Shown: positions 2,318 through 10,304 of the stretch, one piece after another
Position numbering within the stretch: the stretch's first letter is position 1
Layout of the letters: each line of letters opens with the position of its first letter
Assembly (NCBI GenBank): GCA_004376055.2
Contig: CP049016.1
Coordinates: forward strand, 2,914,001-2,978,000
DNA length: 64,000 bases
From: Nitrospirales bacterium LBB_01
GTDB taxonomy: Bacteria; Nitrospirota; Thermodesulfovibrionia; Thermodesulfovibrionales; Magnetobacteriaceae
Direction: 5' to 3'
Notes under the pieces: generated by a model
The model's database searches: none
The model's input: only the letters and a program-made list of their open reading frames with translations
Told to the model about the DNA's origin: nothing
Translations under genes and position numbers: made by a program

Positions 2318-2347
2318 ATTCTAATCCTTTATATGCTAAAATGTCAA
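2318..2347 (-). promoter_or_regulatory. promoter of tRNA-Pro
   Basis: Read on the minus strand: TTGACA (2342-2347), 18-nt spacer, TAGAAT (2318-2323). Transcription would begin near 2311, about 9 nt before the mature tRNA 5' end. It overlaps the divergent gspC start region. Confidence 0.65.
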
Positions 2348-2359
2348 ACACGGATTTTG

Positions 2360-2365
2360 TATAAT
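2360..2365 (+). promoter_or_regulatory. -10 box of gspC, likely leaderless
   Basis: A perfect TATAAT ends 6 nt before the preferred gspC ATG at 2372, so transcription would start at or next to the start codon. No convincing -35 box or ribosome-binding site is seen. Confidence 0.4.
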
Positions 2366-2371
2366 TTTGAT

Positions 2372-3232
2372 ATGCTAAAGAAATATCTGTCCATTTTATC
2401 AAGAGGAAATGTCTCTGCTCTTACTGCCGTTTTTGGCGGTATCGTACTTATTGTCTCTGTTCTTCTGATTATCAGAGACGGCGTCACCTTTACCTCTAAA
2501 AACCAGGAGCCATCTGCCATCAACGTTCACTCAATAGGAAAAACCGCCGCTAAGGAACTCTCAGGGTTTGCCCCGATTGTTGAAAAAAACGCATTTGGTC
2601 TCAGAGATTTAAAATTTACTCAGCTTTTACCACTTAAGGGAAAGAACGTCTCTGCCAATATATCCAAATATAAACTTATGGGCACTATAGCCGGTGACAA
2701 AGGAACAGGGTATGCCATATTTGAAGATGGCGGCGGCAAACAGGAAATTTTCAAGGCCGGACAGCGTGTCTCCGATGGTCTTGTCCTTAAAGAGGTTTTA
2801 GCAAAGGAGGCACTTTTTTCAGACGGCACCTCAATTGTCCTTTCTGAAATGCCGTCAGCTCAAACAAGAGAAACCCATACAGGCACAAATGCCTTAGGGA
2901 GAAAAATAGACTCATCCAACTATCAGCTTGATAACACAAAAGTTCAACAAGCTCTTGAAAATCCCAAACAACTGATGACTGAGGCACGGCTGCAACCAAA
3001 TCTGGTTAACGGCAAGCAGGCAGGGTTCATTATGAGAGAAGTTAAGCCGGGCGGGATTTACGACACCCTCGGAATAAAAAATGATGATGTCCTGTTAAAA
3101 ATTAACAGCTATGATATTACAGATCCGGAGGCCGCCCTTCAGGCTTTCACAGCGCTTAGAGGCGTAAGCGAAATCCACCTTGATATTATCCGCGGTGGAA
3201 ACAAAATGACCCTTAACTACAATATTATGTGA
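2372..3232 (+). CDS. gspC: type II secretion system protein GspC
   Basis: Inner-membrane clamp protein of type II secretion that links the platform to the secretin. A short cytoplasmic start is followed by one membrane anchor (about residues 14-34), then a periplasmic HR domain (about 60-170, containing KYKLMGTIAG) and a C-terminal PDZ domain (about 205-286) in which GIYDTLGIKNDDVLLKIN is the recognisable core. The frame stays open up to an ATG at 2333. The ATG at 2372 places the membrane anchor at the usual distance and sits right after a TATAAT. It is the first gene of a gspC-D-E-F-G-H run, with gspD 18 nt downstream. Confidence 0.85.
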   Translation: MLKKYLSILSRGNVSALTAVFGGIVLIVSVLLIIRDGVTFTSKNQEPSAINVHSIGKTAAKELSGFAPIVEKNAFGLRDLKFTQLLPLKGKNVSANISKYKLMGTIAGDKGTGYAIFEDGGGKQEIFKAGQRVSDGLVLKEVLAKEALFSDGTSIVLSEMPSAQTRETHTGTNALGRKIDSSNYQLDNTKVQQALENPKQLMTEARLQPNLVNGKQAGFIMREVKPGGIYDTLGIKNDDVLLKINSYDITDPEAALQAFTALRGVSEIHLDIIRGGNKMTLNYNIM

Positions 3233-3250
3233 TGATGAGGTATTGATACT

Positions 3251-5422
3251 ATGACAAAAAGACTATTTATAAATTTAGTACTCGTTATGTTTGCTTTGAC
3301 TTTTACCTTGCAGGCGGCGGCTGAGGAGGAAAAGATAACTTTCAACTTTGTTGGAGCCGATTTGCCGGCTATTGCAAAGTTTATCAGTGATTTAACCGGT
3401 AAAAATATTATTTTTGACGACCAGTTTAAAGGCAAAATTACAATAATTGCTCCAGCTCCAATTTATAAGTCCGAGGCTTTTAAACTGTTTACCTCTGTGC
3501 TTGAACTTAAAGGTTTTACGGTAATTTCTGCCGGCACTAACACCTATAAAATCATCACAACCGCCGAGGCTAAACAAAAAGGAGTTGAGCTTTCCTCCGA
3601 TAAAATTTTAAATGAAAATTACATTGCAAGGCTTATTCAATTGGAGCACATATCGGGTGATGACGCCGTTAAACTGCTTAGACCGATTATGACTAAAGAC
3701 GGTTTTGTTTCAGAGTTTTCACCCAGAAACATGATTCTTGTTATGGATTCCGGTTCAAATCTTGAAAAAATTCTTAAAATAATCAAAACCATAGACAGAC
3801 CGTCTCAGGAGGATGTGCCCGATATTGTATATCTTAAAAATGCCAACTCTGAAAGCCTTGCCAAAATTATCAACGAAGGTCTAAAGCGCGGCCAGACAAG
3901 ACCTCAGGTTGCAAAAAAGGGTGACTTTGAAGAGGCTTATGTTGTTGCCGACCACAGACTCAATGCAATAGTTGTGTTTGGAAACAAGAGTGATCGAACG
4001 CCGATTAAGAGGCTCATAGGTCTTCTTGATGTGCCGTCCCCTGAGGCAAATGGCGGCATAAATGTATATTTTCTAGAACACGCCAACGCTGATGAGCTTT
4101 CAAAGGTATTAGATAATCTTATAAAGAAAGCCCAACAGCCCTCACAAGACAAAGCTGGCCAAAAACCACAGGCTGCCGCTTTTAACTCTTCTGCGGAAAT
4201 CTCCATCACGCCGGATGTAGCCACCAACTCTTTGGTTGTGATGGCCTCACCCTCTGACTACAAAAACATCGTTGAAGTCATAAGGAAACTTGACAGAAGA
4301 CGCAAGCAGGTTTACGTAGAGGCACTTATAATTGAGGTATCTACGAGTAAATTAGCCGAGCTTGGCACCAAATGGCGCGGTCTTGGCGCTCAGGGCAGCA
4401 CCATGCTAATAGGCGGCGTTGGCTCTATCAGTACCAGCGCTTTGCAAAATGTTATAACTGGGTTAAGCGGTTTTAGCTTAGGAGGCCTCGGTAAGTTTGT
4501 AGACGTCTCATACTCAACAACTGCCGCTGACGGCACAGTGACAACCTCCACAATGTCGGTGCCGGCGCTTGCCGCCCTTTTTAATATAAATGATTTTAAG
4601 GGCGTTATCAATGTTCTTTCCACGCCTCAGATTCTAACCTCAGACAACAAAGAGGCTGAGATAATGGTTGGTGAAAACGTGCCGTTTGTTGCTAAAAGAG
4701 AATCTGACCCATCCAGAACCGCCTCCGTGTTTAACAGCATAGAAAGAAAAGACGTTGGTATCTCTCTTAAAATAACGCCGCACATTACAGAGGGAGATGT
4801 AATTAAACTTGACGTCTATCAGGAGATTTCAGCAGTGTTGGCAGAGAGTAATTCTGACATTACTATAAGTCTGGGGCCTACCACCTCAAAGCGTTCCACA
4901 AAGACTACTATTTTTGCTAAAGACAACGAAACCATAGTAATTGGCGGTCTCTTGCAGGAGCGTGAGGAGACCAACGTATATAAGGTACCCGTTTTAGGCG
5001 ATATTCCTGTCCTTGGGCTGTTATTTAAACAAGACCAAACCACAAAAGCAAAGATAAATCTCATGGTATTTCTAACTCCCCACATAGTGGAAACAAATGA
5101 CAAAGCAGCAGCAATTACAAAAATAAAAGGCACAAGTGTGGTTGATGATTACACATCAGGGAAAACAAAGACAAGAGAAAGGGTTGTTATAAGATTTAGG
5201 GACCCTGTCAGCAAAGAACTGTCTATTAAAATAATTGAGGATTACAGAGCACGTATTGTAAGTGAATTTCCAACTCCTAATCTGTTTTTAATAGAGCTGC
5301 CTCAGGGAAAAACCTTCAAAGAGGCTAAGACTGAATTAGAGCTGATGTCAGAAGTTAAGTATGTTGAACAGGATTATTTTATGGAACGAGTAAAAGAAGA
5401 AAAAAACACCGGTAAGAAATGA
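3251..5422 (+). CDS. gspD: type II secretion secretin GspD with extra C-terminal domain
   Basis: Outer-membrane secretin pore, 723 residues. A signal peptide (about 1-25) is followed by an N0 domain (about 28-100), three N1-N3 ring domains (about 125-350) and the secretin beta-barrel domain starting near VYVEALIIEVS and ending near residue 625 (LMVFLTPHIV). A Gly/Ser/Thr-rich insertion sits within the barrel domain. The last ~82 residues are odd: the segment with VVIRFRDPVS, NLFLIELPQGK and VKYVEQDYF resembles the fervidolysin/subtilase propeptide-like fold instead of the usual secretin S-domain tail. It lies 4 nt before gspE. The secretin call is firm; the tail assignment is inference. Confidence 0.92.
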   Translation: MTKRLFINLVLVMFALTFTLQAAAEEEKITFNFVGADLPAIAKFISDLTGKNIIFDDQFKGKITIIAPAPIYKSEAFKLFTSVLELKGFTVISAGTNTYKIITTAEAKQKGVELSSDKILNENYIARLIQLEHISGDDAVKLLRPIMTKDGFVSEFSPRNMILVMDSGSNLEKILKIIKTIDRPSQEDVPDIVYLKNANSESLAKIINEGLKRGQTRPQVAKKGDFEEAYVVADHRLNAIVVFGNKSDRTPIKRLIGLLDVPSPEANGGINVYFLEHANADELSKVLDNLIKKAQQPSQDKAGQKPQAAAFNSSAEISITPDVATNSLVVMASPSDYKNIVEVIRKLDRRRKQVYVEALIIEVSTSKLAELGTKWRGLGAQGSTMLIGGVGSISTSALQNVITGLSGFSLGGLGKFVDVSYSTTAADGTVTTSTMSVPALAALFNINDFKGVINVLSTPQILTSDNKEAEIMVGENVPFVAKRESDPSRTASVFNSIERKDVGISLKITPHITEGDVIKLDVYQEISAVLAESNSDITISLGPTTSKRSTKTTIFAKDNETIVIGGLLQEREETNVYKVPVLGDIPVLGLLFKQDQTTKAKINLMVFLTPHIVETNDKAAAITKIKGTSVVDDYTSGKTKTRERVVIRFRDPVSKELSIKIIEDYRARIVSEFPTPNLFLIELPQGKTFKEAKTELELMSEVKYVEQDYFMERVKEEKNTGKK

Positions 5423-5426
5423 GCAC

Positions 5427-6941
5427 ATGATAACAGTGGATACGACAGAAGAAACAGCCTTTGATTTAAACCTCATAAAGCACATACCTCTTACGTTTGC
5501 TAAGACCAATATGGTTTTACCAATAAGGAGAGACGCCTCTGTGCTTGAGGGTTATGTCAGCGATATGCAGGGCTCATTTGCCCTTAGTGAGATAGCTGTC
5601 TCCTTAGCACTAAAGTCTAAACCTATATTGATAGACAGAGAAAAACTGCTTGCTCTGATAAACCGCATATACGGAATGGCTGGGAGTGCTGCCGAGGTTA
5701 TGGACAACATGAACGAGGGGGATTTTGACACGGTAGCCACCGAGTTTGAATCCCCTAAAGACATCATGGAACTGACCGGAGATGCCCCTATCATTAGGCT
5801 CTTAAACGCACTCCTTCAGCAGGCGGTTAAGGAAAACGCATCGGATATTCACATAGAGCCGTATGAAAACGATCTTCAGGTACGATTACGTATTGACGGG
5901 ATTTTAAGAAAAATCCTGACCCCTCCTAAAATAATTCAGGATGCTCTCATTAGCAGAGTAAAGATCATGGCCAACATGGACATTGCCCAGAGGAGGCTGC
6001 CTCAAGACGGCAGAATCCGGCTTCTCATCAGCGGCAAAGACATAGACGTCAGGGTGTCTATCATTCCGTCAGTGTTTGGCGAGCGTGCGGTGTTGAGAAT
6101 TCTGGACAGAAAACAGGGACTGATGGGGCTTAGCGCTCTTGGATTTGATGACGTTACAAAGGGTAAACTGGAAACACTCCTAAGCCGCCCTCATGGGATT
6201 TTTCTTGTTACAGGCCCCACAGGCAGCGGAAAAACTACAACACTCTATGCCGCACTTAATCATATCTACTCCGAAGAGAAAAACATCATAACGATTGAAG
6301 ACCCCGTAGAGTATCAGATAAGGGGGATAGCTCAAATCGGCGTAAACACACGCATTGGGCTTACATTCGCAAGCGGTCTTCGCTCTGTACTGAGACACGA
6401 CCCAGACGTTATAATGGTCGGTGAAATTAGGGACTACGACACGGCTGAAATTGCAGTTCAAGCCTCGCTTACCGGACACCTTGTGCTAAGCACCCTGCAC
6501 ACAAACGATGCCGTCTCCTCAGTTACCAGACTGATTGACATGGGGGTGGAGCCGTTTCTTATAGCGTCGTCGCTCTGTGGAGTTGTTGCCGAGCGGCTTA
6601 TCAGAGTAATATGCACTGAGTGTAAGGAGCAATATGAACCGACTGAGCTTGAGAGAAGCTATTTTAGTGTTCCAATACAGACGCTTTTCAGAGGCTGTGG
6701 GTGCCCGCGCTGTAATAATACCGGATATTTTGGGAGAATTGGAATATTTGAACTTTTTGCTATAGATACCGGAGTGTTACCGCTTATAAATTCAAATACC
6801 GATTCCACGGCAATTAAAAACTATGCAGTAGAACACGGAATGAAAACACTTCGTCAGGATGGACTTGTTAAAGCTGCAACCGGACAGACCTCCTTACAAG
6901 AGGTGCTCAGAGTGACTCAAAAAGACGATGCCGGTATTTAA
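5427..6941 (+). CDS. gspE: type II secretion ATPase GspE
   Basis: Cytoplasmic hexameric ATPase that powers pseudopilus assembly, 504 residues. A short N-terminal domain (1-95) is followed by the N2/CTE region and the ATPase core: Walker A GPTGSGKTTT near residue 262, Asp box and Walker B DPDVIMVGEIRD near 325, His box LSTLHTNDA near 355. A four-Cys zinc motif (CTEC near 394 and CPRC near 428) is typical of GspE/PilB. The gene starts 4 nt after gspD and its end overlaps gspF by 14 nt, so translation is probably coupled. Confidence 0.95.
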   Translation: MITVDTTEETAFDLNLIKHIPLTFAKTNMVLPIRRDASVLEGYVSDMQGSFALSEIAVSLALKSKPILIDREKLLALINRIYGMAGSAAEVMDNMNEGDFDTVATEFESPKDIMELTGDAPIIRLLNALLQQAVKENASDIHIEPYENDLQVRLRIDGILRKILTPPKIIQDALISRVKIMANMDIAQRRLPQDGRIRLLISGKDIDVRVSIIPSVFGERAVLRILDRKQGLMGLSALGFDDVTKGKLETLLSRPHGIFLVTGPTGSGKTTTLYAALNHIYSEEKNIITIEDPVEYQIRGIAQIGVNTRIGLTFASGLRSVLRHDPDVIMVGEIRDYDTAEIAVQASLTGHLVLSTLHTNDAVSSVTRLIDMGVEPFLIASSLCGVVAERLIRVICTECKEQYEPTELERSYFSVPIQTLFRGCGCPRCNNTGYFGRIGIFELFAIDTGVLPLINSNTDSTAIKNYAVEHGMKTLRQDGLVKAATGQTSLQEVLRVTQKDDAGI

Positions 6942-8094
6942 GTACAGAGGGTATAACTCAGAGGGCAGACGGCACTCAGGCGCCCTTGAGGCTGATAATG
7001 TCACTGACGCACTGCGGCTTCTTAAACTTAAAGATATTTATCCTGAAAAGGTAGTACATGAAAACAAGACTGGTTTCACATTCTCTATTACAAGTGACGC
7101 AGGCGCTCTTAAGACATTAACGGCACATTTGGCAGTTTTGGTCTCATCGGGGGTAGCAATTGTTGACGCTATGGATACGCTTTCAGAAAGACGAGGGGGA
7201 AAGCTCCGGTCAATGCTTGTGTCAATTAAGGAACGTTTGCGGGCGGGCGCAAGTCTTTCACGCGCTATGGAGGATTACCCTAAATTTTTCCCCGATTTCT
7301 ACATAAGTATGATAAGCGCTGGAGAGACTGGAGGCTGCCTTGACAGCGTGCTCAATGAGTTAGCCGATTTTCTTGAAAGCCGTGACGAAATGGACTCAGC
7401 CGTTAAATCAGCCGCCATATACCCTGCCATAATGCTAACTGTGGGGACTTTCGTGTTAACCTTTGTGTTTGTCTTTGTAGTGCCAAAGCTGGTTAAGATA
7501 TTTGAGGACTCCGACAAGGCGCTGCCGCTAGCAACCGTGATTTTAATAACTATGAGCAATTTCTTAAAGAACTACCTCTGGGCATTGATTGCAGGCATTA
7601 TATGTTTAACTTATATGATACGGCGATACGTTAAAACTCATGCTCTAAAGGTAGGGGAAATCCTTACCAAAATACCGGTTTTGAATTCGCTCTATGTATC
7701 ACGATTTTTAAAGACGACCGGCTCACTTCTTAAAAACGGGGTTCCAATGTTAAAAACGCTGAGGCTCTCATCAAAAACCATAGGAAATGCCTTTTACGAA
7801 AGACAGATTCTTGAGGCGGAAAAAGCGGTCTCTGAGGGACTTTCACTGTCTTTGGCGCTGTCTGATTTTCCGCCGATTGTAAAAGAAATCATATTAACCG
7901 GCGAGCGTACGGGGGCGCTTTCAGATATGCTCCTTAAGACATCCCTTACATACGAAAAGGAATTTAAGGCTGGCACAAAGCGAGCACTAACTGCTCTTGA
8001 GCCTTTAATTGTACTTGTCATGGGATTTATTGTAGGCTTTATAGTGTTTGCCGTGCTCTTGCCGGTGTTTGAGCTTAATCAGTTGATTAGATGA
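6928..8094 (+). CDS. gspF: type II secretion inner-membrane protein GspF
   Basis: Polytopic platform protein of type II secretion/type IV pili, 388 residues. Two repeated GspF domains are visible (about 60-185 and 265-385), each ending in hydrophobic segments; the membrane spans lie near 160-185, 210-230 and 360-382. The N-terminal FKYRGYNSEGRRHSG is the characteristic start of the family. The ATG lies inside the end of gspE, giving a 14-nt overlap. The major pseudopilin gene follows after 16 nt. Confidence 0.94.
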   Translation: MPVFKYRGYNSEGRRHSGALEADNVTDALRLLKLKDIYPEKVVHENKTGFTFSITSDAGALKTLTAHLAVLVSSGVAIVDAMDTLSERRGGKLRSMLVSIKERLRAGASLSRAMEDYPKFFPDFYISMISAGETGGCLDSVLNELADFLESRDEMDSAVKSAAIYPAIMLTVGTFVLTFVFVFVVPKLVKIFEDSDKALPLATVILITMSNFLKNYLWALIAGIICLTYMIRRYVKTHALKVGEILTKIPVLNSLYVSRFLKTTGSLLKNGVPMLKTLRLSSKTIGNAFYERQILEAEKAVSEGLSLSLALSDFPPIVKEIILTGERTGALSDMLLKTSLTYEKEFKAGTKRALTALEPLIVLVMGFIVGFIVFAVLLPVFELNQLIR

Positions 8095-8110
8095 AACCTG
8101 GAGGTTTTTG

Positions 8111-8569
8111 ATGCTAAAACATTTTAGATTGGAGGGCAATTCGGGAGTCAGAGGGTTCACATTGCTTGAGATAATCGTGGTGGTTTTCATATTAAGTCTT
8201 TTAGCGGCAATTGTGGCGCCTAAAATCATAGGCCGCACGGATGACGCACGGATAGCCGATGCAAAAATTCAGATACGAAACTTTGAAACCGCTCTAAAAT
8301 TGTATAAACTGGACACAGGGTTTTTCCCAACCACAGAGCAAGGACTTGAGGCACTGGTAGTAAAACCCACAGTTGGGCAAGTGCCGCAAAATTATCGTGA
8401 GGGCGGTTATCTGGAGAACAAAAAGATTCCCGCTGACCCATGGGGCAGGCCGTATGTATATGTCTCACCCGGCGCTCACGGAGATTACGACATTGTGTCA
8501 TACGGAGCGGACGGTGTGCAAGGCGGTGAGGGCATAAATAAGGATATTGAAAGCTGGAACATCCAATAA
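8111..8569 (+). CDS. gspG: major pseudopilin GspG
   Basis: Major pseudopilin, 152 residues. The type III signal RGFTLLEIIVVV (prepilin peptidase cleaves between G and F, with Glu5 of the mature protein present) is followed by a hydrophobic helix and the globular domain with TTEQGLEALV, DPWGRPY and the calcium-site region near YGADG. This is a near-textbook GspG. The ATG at 8111 is preferred over a TTG one codon upstream because GGAGG ends at 8104, 6 nt away. Its 3' end overlaps the next pseudopilin gene by 23 nt. Confidence 0.95.
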   Translation: MLKHFRLEGNSGVRGFTLLEIIVVVFILSLLAAIVAPKIIGRTDDARIADAKIQIRNFETALKLYKLDTGFFPTTEQGLEALVVKPTVGQVPQNYREGGYLENKKIPADPWGRPYVYVSPGAHGDYDIVSYGADGVQGGEGINKDIESWNIQ

Positions 8570-9023
8570 CAGCCAACGAGGAGTGACCCTGTTAGAGCTG
8601 GTAGTCGTAATGTTTATAATCTCGGTTATAATTGTGCTTTCGTACCCATCTTTTATGAGCCTTAGAGCCTCACCCTCAATTGAAGCCAAGCGGCTTGCCT
8701 CAGTGATTACATATCTAAACGACACATCATCAAACAGACGGCAAACTTGCATTCTTATTGTTGATTTTAAGAAAAAAGAGCTGCGCTGGGAAACCTCTGA
8801 TGGTATTAAGCAAACGTCTTTTAAGTTTCTAAACAGTGTGCTTTTGCCCTCTAAAGGTGAGATTAAAGAGGGGGAGTTACAGGTGTTTTTTGACAGAGAG
8901 GGACTTGGTGAGCTATTTGCCGCATACTTTACCGAAGACAAAAAAACTGTCACACTTATCTATAATCCATTTAGCAGAAGGGTATCAATAGAGCAGGGCA
9001 GAGTGGATTTGACCGCTAAATAG
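8547..9023 (+). CDS. gspH: minor pseudopilin, GspH-like
   Basis: The 158-residue protein has a prepilin signal (RGVTLLELVVVMF, with cleavage before V or after G and Glu5 conserved) and a hydrophobic helix to about residue 35. A C-terminal beta-rich domain follows, containing VIYNPFSRRVS-like strands as in GspH. It probably caps or primes the pseudopilus. The best start is the TTG at 8547 inside gspG, because the signal motif begins only about 11 residues later. No gspI, J, K, L or M follows; the next gene is argJ. The GspH assignment rests on position and length. Confidence 0.75.
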   Translation: MKAGTSNNSQRGVTLLELVVVMFIISVIIVLSYPSFMSLRASPSIEAKRLASVITYLNDTSSNRRQTCILIVDFKKKELRWETSDGIKQTSFKFLNSVLLPSKGEIKEGELQVFFDREGLGELFAAYFTEDKKTVTLIYNPFSRRVSIEQGRVDLTAK

Positions 9024-9110: not shown

Positions 9111-10304
9111 ATGATAAATAAAGATGTGGTAATTCCAAAGGGGTTTTTAATATCAGTGGCTGAGGGTGCCATTAAAAAACCTGGCCGTAAAGATATGACA
9201 CTCATATATTCAACCGTACAGGCACAAGCTGCTGGGGTTTTTACAAAAAACACCGTCAAAGCGGCTCCTGTGATTATAGATATGGAAAGAATGCAAAAGG
9301 GCTTCGGCAGAGCGCTCTTTATAAACAGCGGTAACGCTAATGCCTGTACCGGTAAAAAAGGAATGAATGATGTTCTGAAGATTTCCGCAAAACTTGCAAA
9401 ATTACTCAAAATACCAGCGACCGACATATTCATCTGTTCAACCGGAGTCATAGGCACTCCGCTTCCTATGGATAGAATAACTCCAAAGATACCAGAATTG
9501 GCGCAAAATCTCGGAAAGTCCGCTATGCTTGACGCCGCTTCTGCCATTATGACCACAGATACGTTTCCAAAGCTGTTTTCAACGGAGTTAAAACTTGGTA
9601 AGACTTGTGCCGCACTGTCGGCAATTGCCAAAGGCTCCGGCATGATTTCACCCTCAATGGCTACAATGCTCTCATTTGCCATAACCGATGCAGCTATAAC
9701 AACAGAGGCGCTCAAAGAGGCACTGAGCGTCTCAGTCAATGAAACCTTTAACAGCATTACAGTTGACGGGCAGATGAGCACAAACGACACGGTTATAGTC
9801 CTTGCCAACGGCATTGCCGGAAATAAAACTATAGAAAGCGGCACAAAAGAATTCAAAAAATTTCAAAATGCACTTACAGAGACCTTTTCACAGCTATCTG
9901 ACATGATAGTAAGAGACGGCGAGGGTGCAACCAAATTTATTACTGTAGAGGTCATGGGCGCACCAACGACAGAGGCAGCTAAAGCTATAGCCAAAGAGAT
10001 AGCAAATTCCGCGCTTGTTAAAACCGCAATATACGGGCAGGACGCCAACTGGGGACGCATCATGGCAGCTATGGGCGCATCTGATGTACAGTTTGAACCA
10101 TATGGTGTGGATATATCATTTAACAATGTCAAAGTTGTCCGAAAAGGGCTTTCAACTGACAACGACTCTGCCGCCTCAGCAGTGTTAAAAGAAAAGGAAA
10201 TCCTGATAACTGTAAATTTAAGTATGGGTAAAAGCACAGCAAAAATACGCACTTGTGATTTAACTGAAGAGTATATAAAGATAAATGCTGAATATAGAAC
10301 ATAA
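9111..10304 (+). CDS. argJ: ArgJ, ornithine/glutamate N-acetyltransferase
   Basis: Arginine biosynthesis enzyme of 397 residues. It moves the acetyl group from N-acetylornithine to glutamate and, in bifunctional forms, also uses acetyl-CoA. The self-cleavage site ATML (in SPSMATMLSF, near residue 184) supplies the N-terminal Thr nucleophile of the beta chain. Other conserved stretches are INSGNANACTG, CSTGVIGTPL and GQDANWGRI. The ATG has an AGGGGG site upstream. It has its own promoter and does not belong functionally to the preceding secretion genes. No other arg gene is nearby. Confidence 0.96.
   Translation: MINKDVVIPKGFLISVAEGAIKKPGRKDMTLIYSTVQAQAAGVFTKNTVKAAPVIIDMERMQKGFGRALFINSGNANACTGKKGMNDVLKISAKLAKLLKIPATDIFICSTGVIGTPLPMDRITPKIPELAQNLGKSAMLDAASAIMTTDTFPKLFSTELKLGKTCAALSAIAKGSGMISPSMATMLSFAITDAAITTEALKEALSVSVNETFNSITVDGQMSTNDTVIVLANGIAGNKTIESGTKEFKKFQNALTETFSQLSDMIVRDGEGATKFITVEVMGAPTTEAAKAIAKEIANSALVKTAIYGQDANWGRIMAAMGASDVQFEPYGVDISFNNVKVVRKGLSTDNDSAASAVLKEKEILITVNLSMGKSTAKIRTCDLTEEYIKINAEYRT

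What the first reader, a model, noticed from the sequence alone, without database searches (positions are those of the whole stretch)
5162..5422. Secretin GspD ending in a subtilase-propeptide-like domain
The last ~82 residues (VVIRFRDPVS, NLFLIELPQGK, VKYVEQDYF) resemble the fervidolysin/subtilase inhibitor propeptide fold, not a known secretin tail. Such a domain at the outer-membrane or periplasmic mouth could dock secreted proteases or a pilotin-like partner.
Basis: partly seen in the sequence, partly recalled or inferred. Interest (0 to 1): 0.65.

Follow-up and report, generated by a model that had tools for sequence, protein, structure and literature searches.

The report
Secretion pore with a protease-inhibitor tail
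The outer-membrane pore of this bacterium's type II secretion machine ends in a small domain with the fold of the built-in inhibitor of subtilisin proteases, a fusion kept across a whole class of Nitrospirota, which suggests that the pore itself may hold or restrain proteases passing through it.

Summary
GspD (window 3251-5422) ends in a domain (residues ~643-708, window 5177-5374) that matches Pfam PF22148, the fervidolysin N-terminal prodomain, above its cut-off. [quoted passage not shown] The tail occurs in about 97 sampled genomes of 15 families of one class and is under purifying selection in the window's genus.

New evidence bears on function. (i) The tails resemble stand-alone prodomain proteins more than subtilase prodomains; 18 of 21 stand-alones sit directly upstream of a subtilase (S8) gene. 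(ii) The protease-contacting E-x-N/D motif is conserved, and many tails end where a cleaved propeptide would end. (iii) In three families an S8 gene with the same prodomain lies in or against the gsp operon.

Against: the window's own complete genome encodes no S8 subtilase (only two sedolisin-like proteins), and about 20 other tail-bearing genomes lack one.

Best reading: a trans-acting propeptide-like protease-holding module built into the secretin. The fold is shown; the binding is inferred. Main rival: a secretin-assembly role, replacing the pilotin-binding tail. I found no description of this fusion in the open-access papers searched.

The parts
3251..5422 (+). gspD, type II secretion secretin, 723 aa, with C-terminal propeptide-like domain
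   Evidence: TIGR02517 518 bits; Secretin, Secretin_N and N0 Pfam domains
5096..5152 (+). Helix after the barrel (residues 616-634), placed like the first S-domain helix; no pilotin-binding second helix recognised
   Evidence: Full-length AlphaFold2 model, low confidence here; S-domain definition from PMC6532946
5177..5374 (+). Fervidolysin/subtilisin propeptide-like domain (residues 643-708)
   Evidence: PF22148 above cut-off; [quoted passage not shown] best PDB matches are subtilisin prosegments
5366..5374 (+). E706-Q-D708, equivalent of the helix-capping Glu69/Asp71 of the subtilisin BPN' propeptide
   Evidence: Conservation table: E in 96% of GspD tails, N/E/D in about 95%; capping role in PMC6993865
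5375..5419 (+). C-terminal extension beyond the conserved Tyr (ends at Tyr+14; most relatives end at Tyr+5 to Tyr+8)
2333..3232 (+). gspC (T2SSC and PDZ) directly upstream
   Evidence: T2SSC score just under its Pfam cut-off, position and PDZ support it
5427..6941 (+). gspE ATPase
   Evidence: T2SSE Pfam 464 bits
6928..9023 (+). gspF, gspG and gspH-like genes (6928-8094, 8108-8569, 8547-9023)
   Evidence: ORFs; pseudopilin motifs GFTLLE and GVTLLE; homologues in the gsp operons of relatives

Best explanation
The GspD tail is a subtilase-propeptide domain that works in trans. Each secretin subunit carries one copy on the periplasmic side, after the barrel and one helix, so the assembled pore should carry a ring of them. 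In the class as a whole its ancestral job is most likely to bind the catalytic domain of subtilases that use the same secretion system, holding them positioned and inhibited near the pore (and perhaps helping them fold), as stand-alone propeptide-like inhibitors do. Shown here: the fold, the conservation, the fusion, the protease-facing motif, the closeness to stand-alone prodomain proteins paired with S8 genes, and S8 genes inside gsp operons of relatives. Inferred: periplasmic placement in a ring, physical binding, inhibition, effect on secretion. In the window's own species the S8 partner is missing, so there the domain must serve another partner or a structural role.
For: Profile and fold. 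Nearest relatives outside GspD: all 78 tails have a stand-alone prodomain protein, not an S8 prodomain, as nearest other-class tip; 18 of 21 stand-alones lie directly upstream of an S8 gene on the same strand, mostly overlapping it. Motif: E conserved in 96% and N/E/D in about 95% of tails, matching BPN' Glu69/Asp71 and the Glu/Asn of the malaria inhibitor SUB1-ProM (PMC6993865). C-termini: 49 of 79 tails end at Tyr+5 to +8 and 20 of 21 stand-alones at Tyr+5/+6, while the predicted autoprocessing site of the S8 proteins is at Tyr+5/+6 in 56 of 64. Operons: an S8 with this prodomain overlaps the last (gspN-like) gene at the 3' end of the gsp operon in one family, lies between gspF and gspG in three genera of a second, and sits next to gspC in a third; in one genome it is in frame with GspG. 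Rough chance of three such families of 14: 1e-4 to 1e-3.
Against: The window's complete genome has no S8 subtilase, yet its tail is under purifying selection (dN/dS 0.14-0.29 in the genus). 21 of 97 tail-bearing genomes have no clear S8. Most families with the tail have no S8 gene near gspD. The operon-linked S8 proteins already carry their own prodomain. Many tails, the window's included, extend well past the expected end point. Motif integrity does not track S8 presence (p 0.47 and 0.31). No binding was tested.
Confidence: 0.45

Rival explanations
1. The domain has been taken over as a structural or assembly module of the secretin. It sits where other GspDs have the pilotin-binding part of the S-domain and helps targeting, oligomer packing or contact with an unknown outer-membrane partner, without binding proteases.
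For: It lies where the second half of the S-domain would be; no PulS/OutS or AspS pilotin was found in the own genome; it is kept under purifying selection where no S8 exists and in about 20 other genomes without a clear S8.
Against: The protease-contacting E-x-N/D motif and, in many tails, a propeptide-like end point are retained, which a purely structural role would not require; S8 genes entered gsp operons in three families; some GspDs of the class lack the tail altogether, so it is not indispensable for assembly.
Confidence: 0.35
2. The domain is a defensive inhibitor that shields the secretin, or the periplasm around it, from subtilases, the cell's own or those of neighbours.
For: Stand-alone proteins of this fold are potent subtilase inhibitors (PMC6993865); it would explain retention in genomes without their own S8.
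Against: The stand-alone relatives are paired with endogenous S8 genes; a domain on the periplasmic side (inferred) would not meet foreign proteases readily.
Confidence: 0.12
3. A neutral relic of an ancient fusion without present function.
For: In the window's genus the tail evolves faster than the rest of GspD (dN/dS 0.14-0.29 against 0.02-0.08).
Against: dN/dS stays well below 1; the domain is kept with an intact fold across 15 families.
Confidence: 0.04

Closest known systems
Fervidolysin N-terminal prodomain and subtilisin BPN'/E prosegments (Pfam PF22148; PDB 1r6v, 1spb, 1scj)
   Same: Sequence profile match above cut-off, same fold, same helix-capping acidic motif
   Different: Here the domain is C-terminal on a secretin, with no protease in the same chain
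Stand-alone propeptide-like inhibitors: POIA1, yeast proteinase B inhibitor, Arabidopsis inhibitor 1, Plasmodium SUB1-ProM (MEROPS I9)
   Same: Propeptide fold separated from a protease; SUB1-ProM is encoded next to subtilase genes, like the bacterial stand-alones found here
   Different: Free small proteins with demonstrated inhibition; here fused to an outer-membrane pore and untested
GspD/PulD/EpsD secretins with an S-domain bound by PulS or AspS pilotins (PMC6532946, PMC3542185)
   Same: Secretin core, N domains and a first helix after the barrel
   Different: A folded propeptide-like domain follows in place of a recognised pilotin-binding helix; neither pilotin family was found in the genome
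ORF2, the external chaperone of Aeromonas sobria serine protease (from general knowledge)
   Same: A separate protein acting on a subtilase in place of, or beside, a propeptide
   Different: Free chaperone, not fused to the secretion machine

Membership tests
Fervidolysin/subtilisin propeptide-like domain (PF22148, I9-like) | Profile match above the curated cut-off | tested here: met
   26.7 bits against 21 in the whole protein; 47 of 49 relatives match
[quoted passage not shown]
   Core pLDDT about 90; Foldseek ranks 1-21 are all subtilase propeptides or pro-forms, best E 1.8e-3, prob 1.0; Z 8.0-8.6 for prosegments, just above the range usual for common folds
Fervidolysin/subtilisin propeptide-like domain (PF22148, I9-like) | Acidic helix-capping pair near the end of the last strand | tested here: met
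   E706 and D708 in the window; E 96%, N/E/D about 95% in tails
Subtilase zymogen (propeptide in cis) | Catalytic S8 domain follows in the same chain | tested here: not met
   GspD ends after the domain; no Peptidase_S8 match in it
Subtilase inhibitor acting in trans | Binds and inhibits a subtilase | not testable with these tools
   Only circumstantial: gene neighbourhood, motif and end point
Type II secretion secretin GspD | Equivalog model match and gsp operon context | tested here: met
   TIGR02517 518 bits; gspC-D-E-F-G-H order
Pilotin-dependent GspD | S-domain second helix and cognate PulS/OutS or AspS pilotin | tested here: inconclusive
   No PF16549 or PF09691 match in the complete genome; the helix motif itself was not tested and other pilotins are possible

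The most novel reading that the evidence does not exclude
The type II pore carries a built-in ring of propeptides that captures its own subtilase cargo, keeps it inactive in the periplasm and releases it on passage, so the channel is a cargo-specific receptor and inhibitor in one.
Probability: 0.3. Interest if true: 0.82.

Novelty: new variant of a known kind. Interest (0 to 1): 0.58.

Why it matters
How type II secretion recognises its folded cargo is a long-standing open question. A secretin fused to a domain whose known relatives bind subtilases gives a concrete, testable receptor-cargo pair, and the gsp-linked subtilases in relatives name the candidate cargo. It also suggests that a class-wide lineage replaced the usual pilotin-binding tail by a protease-binding fold.

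Tried and rejected
Chance resemblance: rejected by family-wide profile matches and structure. Plain S-domain: rejected, the domain follows the first S-like helix. Own subtilase partner: the two PF00082 hits of the genome read as sedolisins by my inspection of their sequences, and the S8 of sister genome G001 is a membrane protein with a different N-terminal region, so neither is a good partner. Decay of motif or end point in genomes without S8: no significant difference; only the profile score is lower (p 0.036, not corrected for kinship). Simple co-occurrence of tail and S8 is uninformative, since tail-less GspD genomes also have S8. A first collection scan with the wide alignment A1 failed for lack of conserved stretches. 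phmmer of the single tail against the PDB found nothing; the profile found weak matches. The full-length GspD model has low overall confidence (pTM 0.29), so domain placement is tentative. Literature: no paper on a secretin with this domain among the open-access texts searched.

Full report
The observation. The ORF at window 3251-5422 encodes a 723-residue GspD inside a gspC-D-E-F-G-H cluster. Its C-terminal stretch matches Pfam PF22148, the fervidolysin N-terminal prodomain, above the curated cut-off, residues 643-707. It is the only match over the cut-off in the complete genome.

Spread. Of 100 related genomes searched with the whole GspD, about fifty GspD orthologues extend to the end of the tail. 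A phylum-wide profile search found the tail on secretin-sized ORFs in about 97 sampled genomes, which I counted by hand from the listed rows: 15 families, all in the window's class (own order plus f15, f16, f19 and f21 outside it). Named relatives are Nitrospirota MAGs, several labelled Thermodesulfovibrionales or Thermodesulfovibrionia, plus one MAG labelled Syntrophaceae, so I infer the window is from that class. 47 of 49 tails hit PF22148 individually, the best at 7.5e-21; the window's own tail (E 2.7e-7) is a weaker match. A few GspDs of the class lack the tail (L027/L060, L058, L059), as do other secretins of the same genomes.

Fold. [quoted passage not shown] Foldseek puts subtilisin BPN' prosegment first (E 1.8e-3, probability 1.0), with fervidolysin at rank 5 and the stand-alone inhibitor POIA1 at rank 15. 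VIA-align gives Z 8.0-8.6 for the prosegments; that is only just above the range seen for common folds, but together with the profile match the assignment is firm. In the full-length model, whose overall confidence is low, a helix at 616-634 precedes the domain, where other GspDs have the first helix of the S-domain; the pilotin-binding second helix described in PMC6532946 has no recognised counterpart. That the tail faces the periplasm is inferred from known secretin structures.

What the domain is related to. In a collection of 80 named loci the domain occurs in three settings: on GspD, as the prodomain of S8 subtilases, and as stand-alone proteins of about 109-170 residues, mainly in Nitrospira but also in MAGs labelled Chloroflexi, Deltaproteobacteria, Nitrospinae and Omnitrophica. 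18 of 21 stand-alones lie directly upstream of an S8 gene on the same strand, mostly overlapping it by ORF bounds; several have lipobox-like signals. In a FastTree of the domain the S8 prodomains group together (support 0.96, with two stand-alones inside); the GspD tails fall on one side of one split without error, but with weak support (0.29); every GspD tail has a stand-alone as its nearest other-class tip. With 83 columns this tree is only a guide, and the profile that gathered the sequences was built from GspD tails.

Protease-facing features. In BPN' the propeptide residues Glu69 and Asp71 cap two helices of the protease, and the malaria inhibitor SUB1-ProM has Glu and Asn there (PMC6993865). 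The GspD tails keep E in 96% and N, E or D in about 95%; the window has E706 and D708. Propeptides end at the cleavage site. Anchoring on the Asp of the thermitase-like mature start (my own alignment, from memory of thermitase), the S8 proteins here have the site at Tyr+5 or +6 in 56 of 64; stand-alones end at Tyr+5/+6 in 20 of 21; GspD tails end at Tyr+5/+6 in 31 and at Tyr+5 to +8 in 49 of 79, the rest being longer with two exceptions. The window ends at Tyr+14.

Neighbourhood. In family f10 an S8 gene with this prodomain follows the gsp operon, its ORF overlapping the last gene (gspN-like by position), and a second lies upstream of gspC in several genera; in f3 it lies between gspF and gspG in three genera; in f2 it is directly upstream of gspC. 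In one f3 genome the S8 frame runs without a stop into GspG; a sequencing error or lost stop is possible. In the other families sampled no S8 lay within roughly 8 kb. A rough binomial estimate for three of 14 families is 1e-4 to 1e-3; the copy number and window size were assumed, and the families were looked at before the estimate was made.

The window's own case. Its genome, one contig at 99.87% completeness, has only two PF00082 hits, which by inspection are sedolisin-like, without an evident signal peptide. 21 of 97 tail-bearing genomes have no clear S8 (the lists were copied by hand from truncated tables, and G002 and G003, counted there as positive, have only weak hits). Still the window's prodomain is under purifying selection: dN/dS 0.14-0.29 where it could be computed, against 0.02-0.08 for the rest of GspD. 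So the domain does something even without an S8 partner in the genome. Motif integrity and end point do not differ significantly with S8 presence.

Judgement. The fold and the fusion are shown. Protease binding in the class is the most economical reading of motif, relatives and operons, but it is unproven and cannot hold in its simplest form for this organism. A structural role in place of the pilotin-binding tail is the main rival; no PulS/OutS or AspS pilotin was found, though other pilotins or none may be used. No paper describing such a secretin was found in the open-access library; subscription papers were not searched, and since Pfam already detects the domain, databases may list the architecture.

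Noticed in passing
L103-L105, L110, L166, L177, L183, L189, L190 (Nitrospira) and L147, L161, L172, L175, L192: Pairs of a small stand-alone prodomain protein, often with a lipobox-like signal, and a directly following S8 subtilase that carries its own second prodomain.
   Followed up: partly
L207:14030-16822: A subtilase frame continues without a stop into the major pseudopilin GspG; in a related genome (L229) the two genes overlap by ORF bounds.
   Followed up: partly
L179:9812-10243: A stand-alone prodomain protein about 2 kb upstream of a gspC-gspD cluster whose GspD lacks the tail, in a Syntrophobacterales MAG.
   Followed up: no
L119, L133, L134: GspD versions with about 220-230 further residues after the propeptide-like domain, of unknown nature.
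   Followed up: no
L107:3882-7013 (own genome 1660881-1664012): Two adjacent sedolisin-like genes, the only clan SB-like peptidases picked up by PF00082 in the genome.
   Followed up: partly
window 9111-10304: The gsp cluster stops after gspH and is followed by an unrelated gene resembling argJ (my reading of the sequence); no further pseudopilin-like gene was seen in the window.
   Followed up: no
L098, L100, L101, L150, L222: The gsp-linked subtilases end in a hydrophobic segment and basic residues like a C-terminal sorting signal, and some start with a lipobox-like signal.
   Followed up: no
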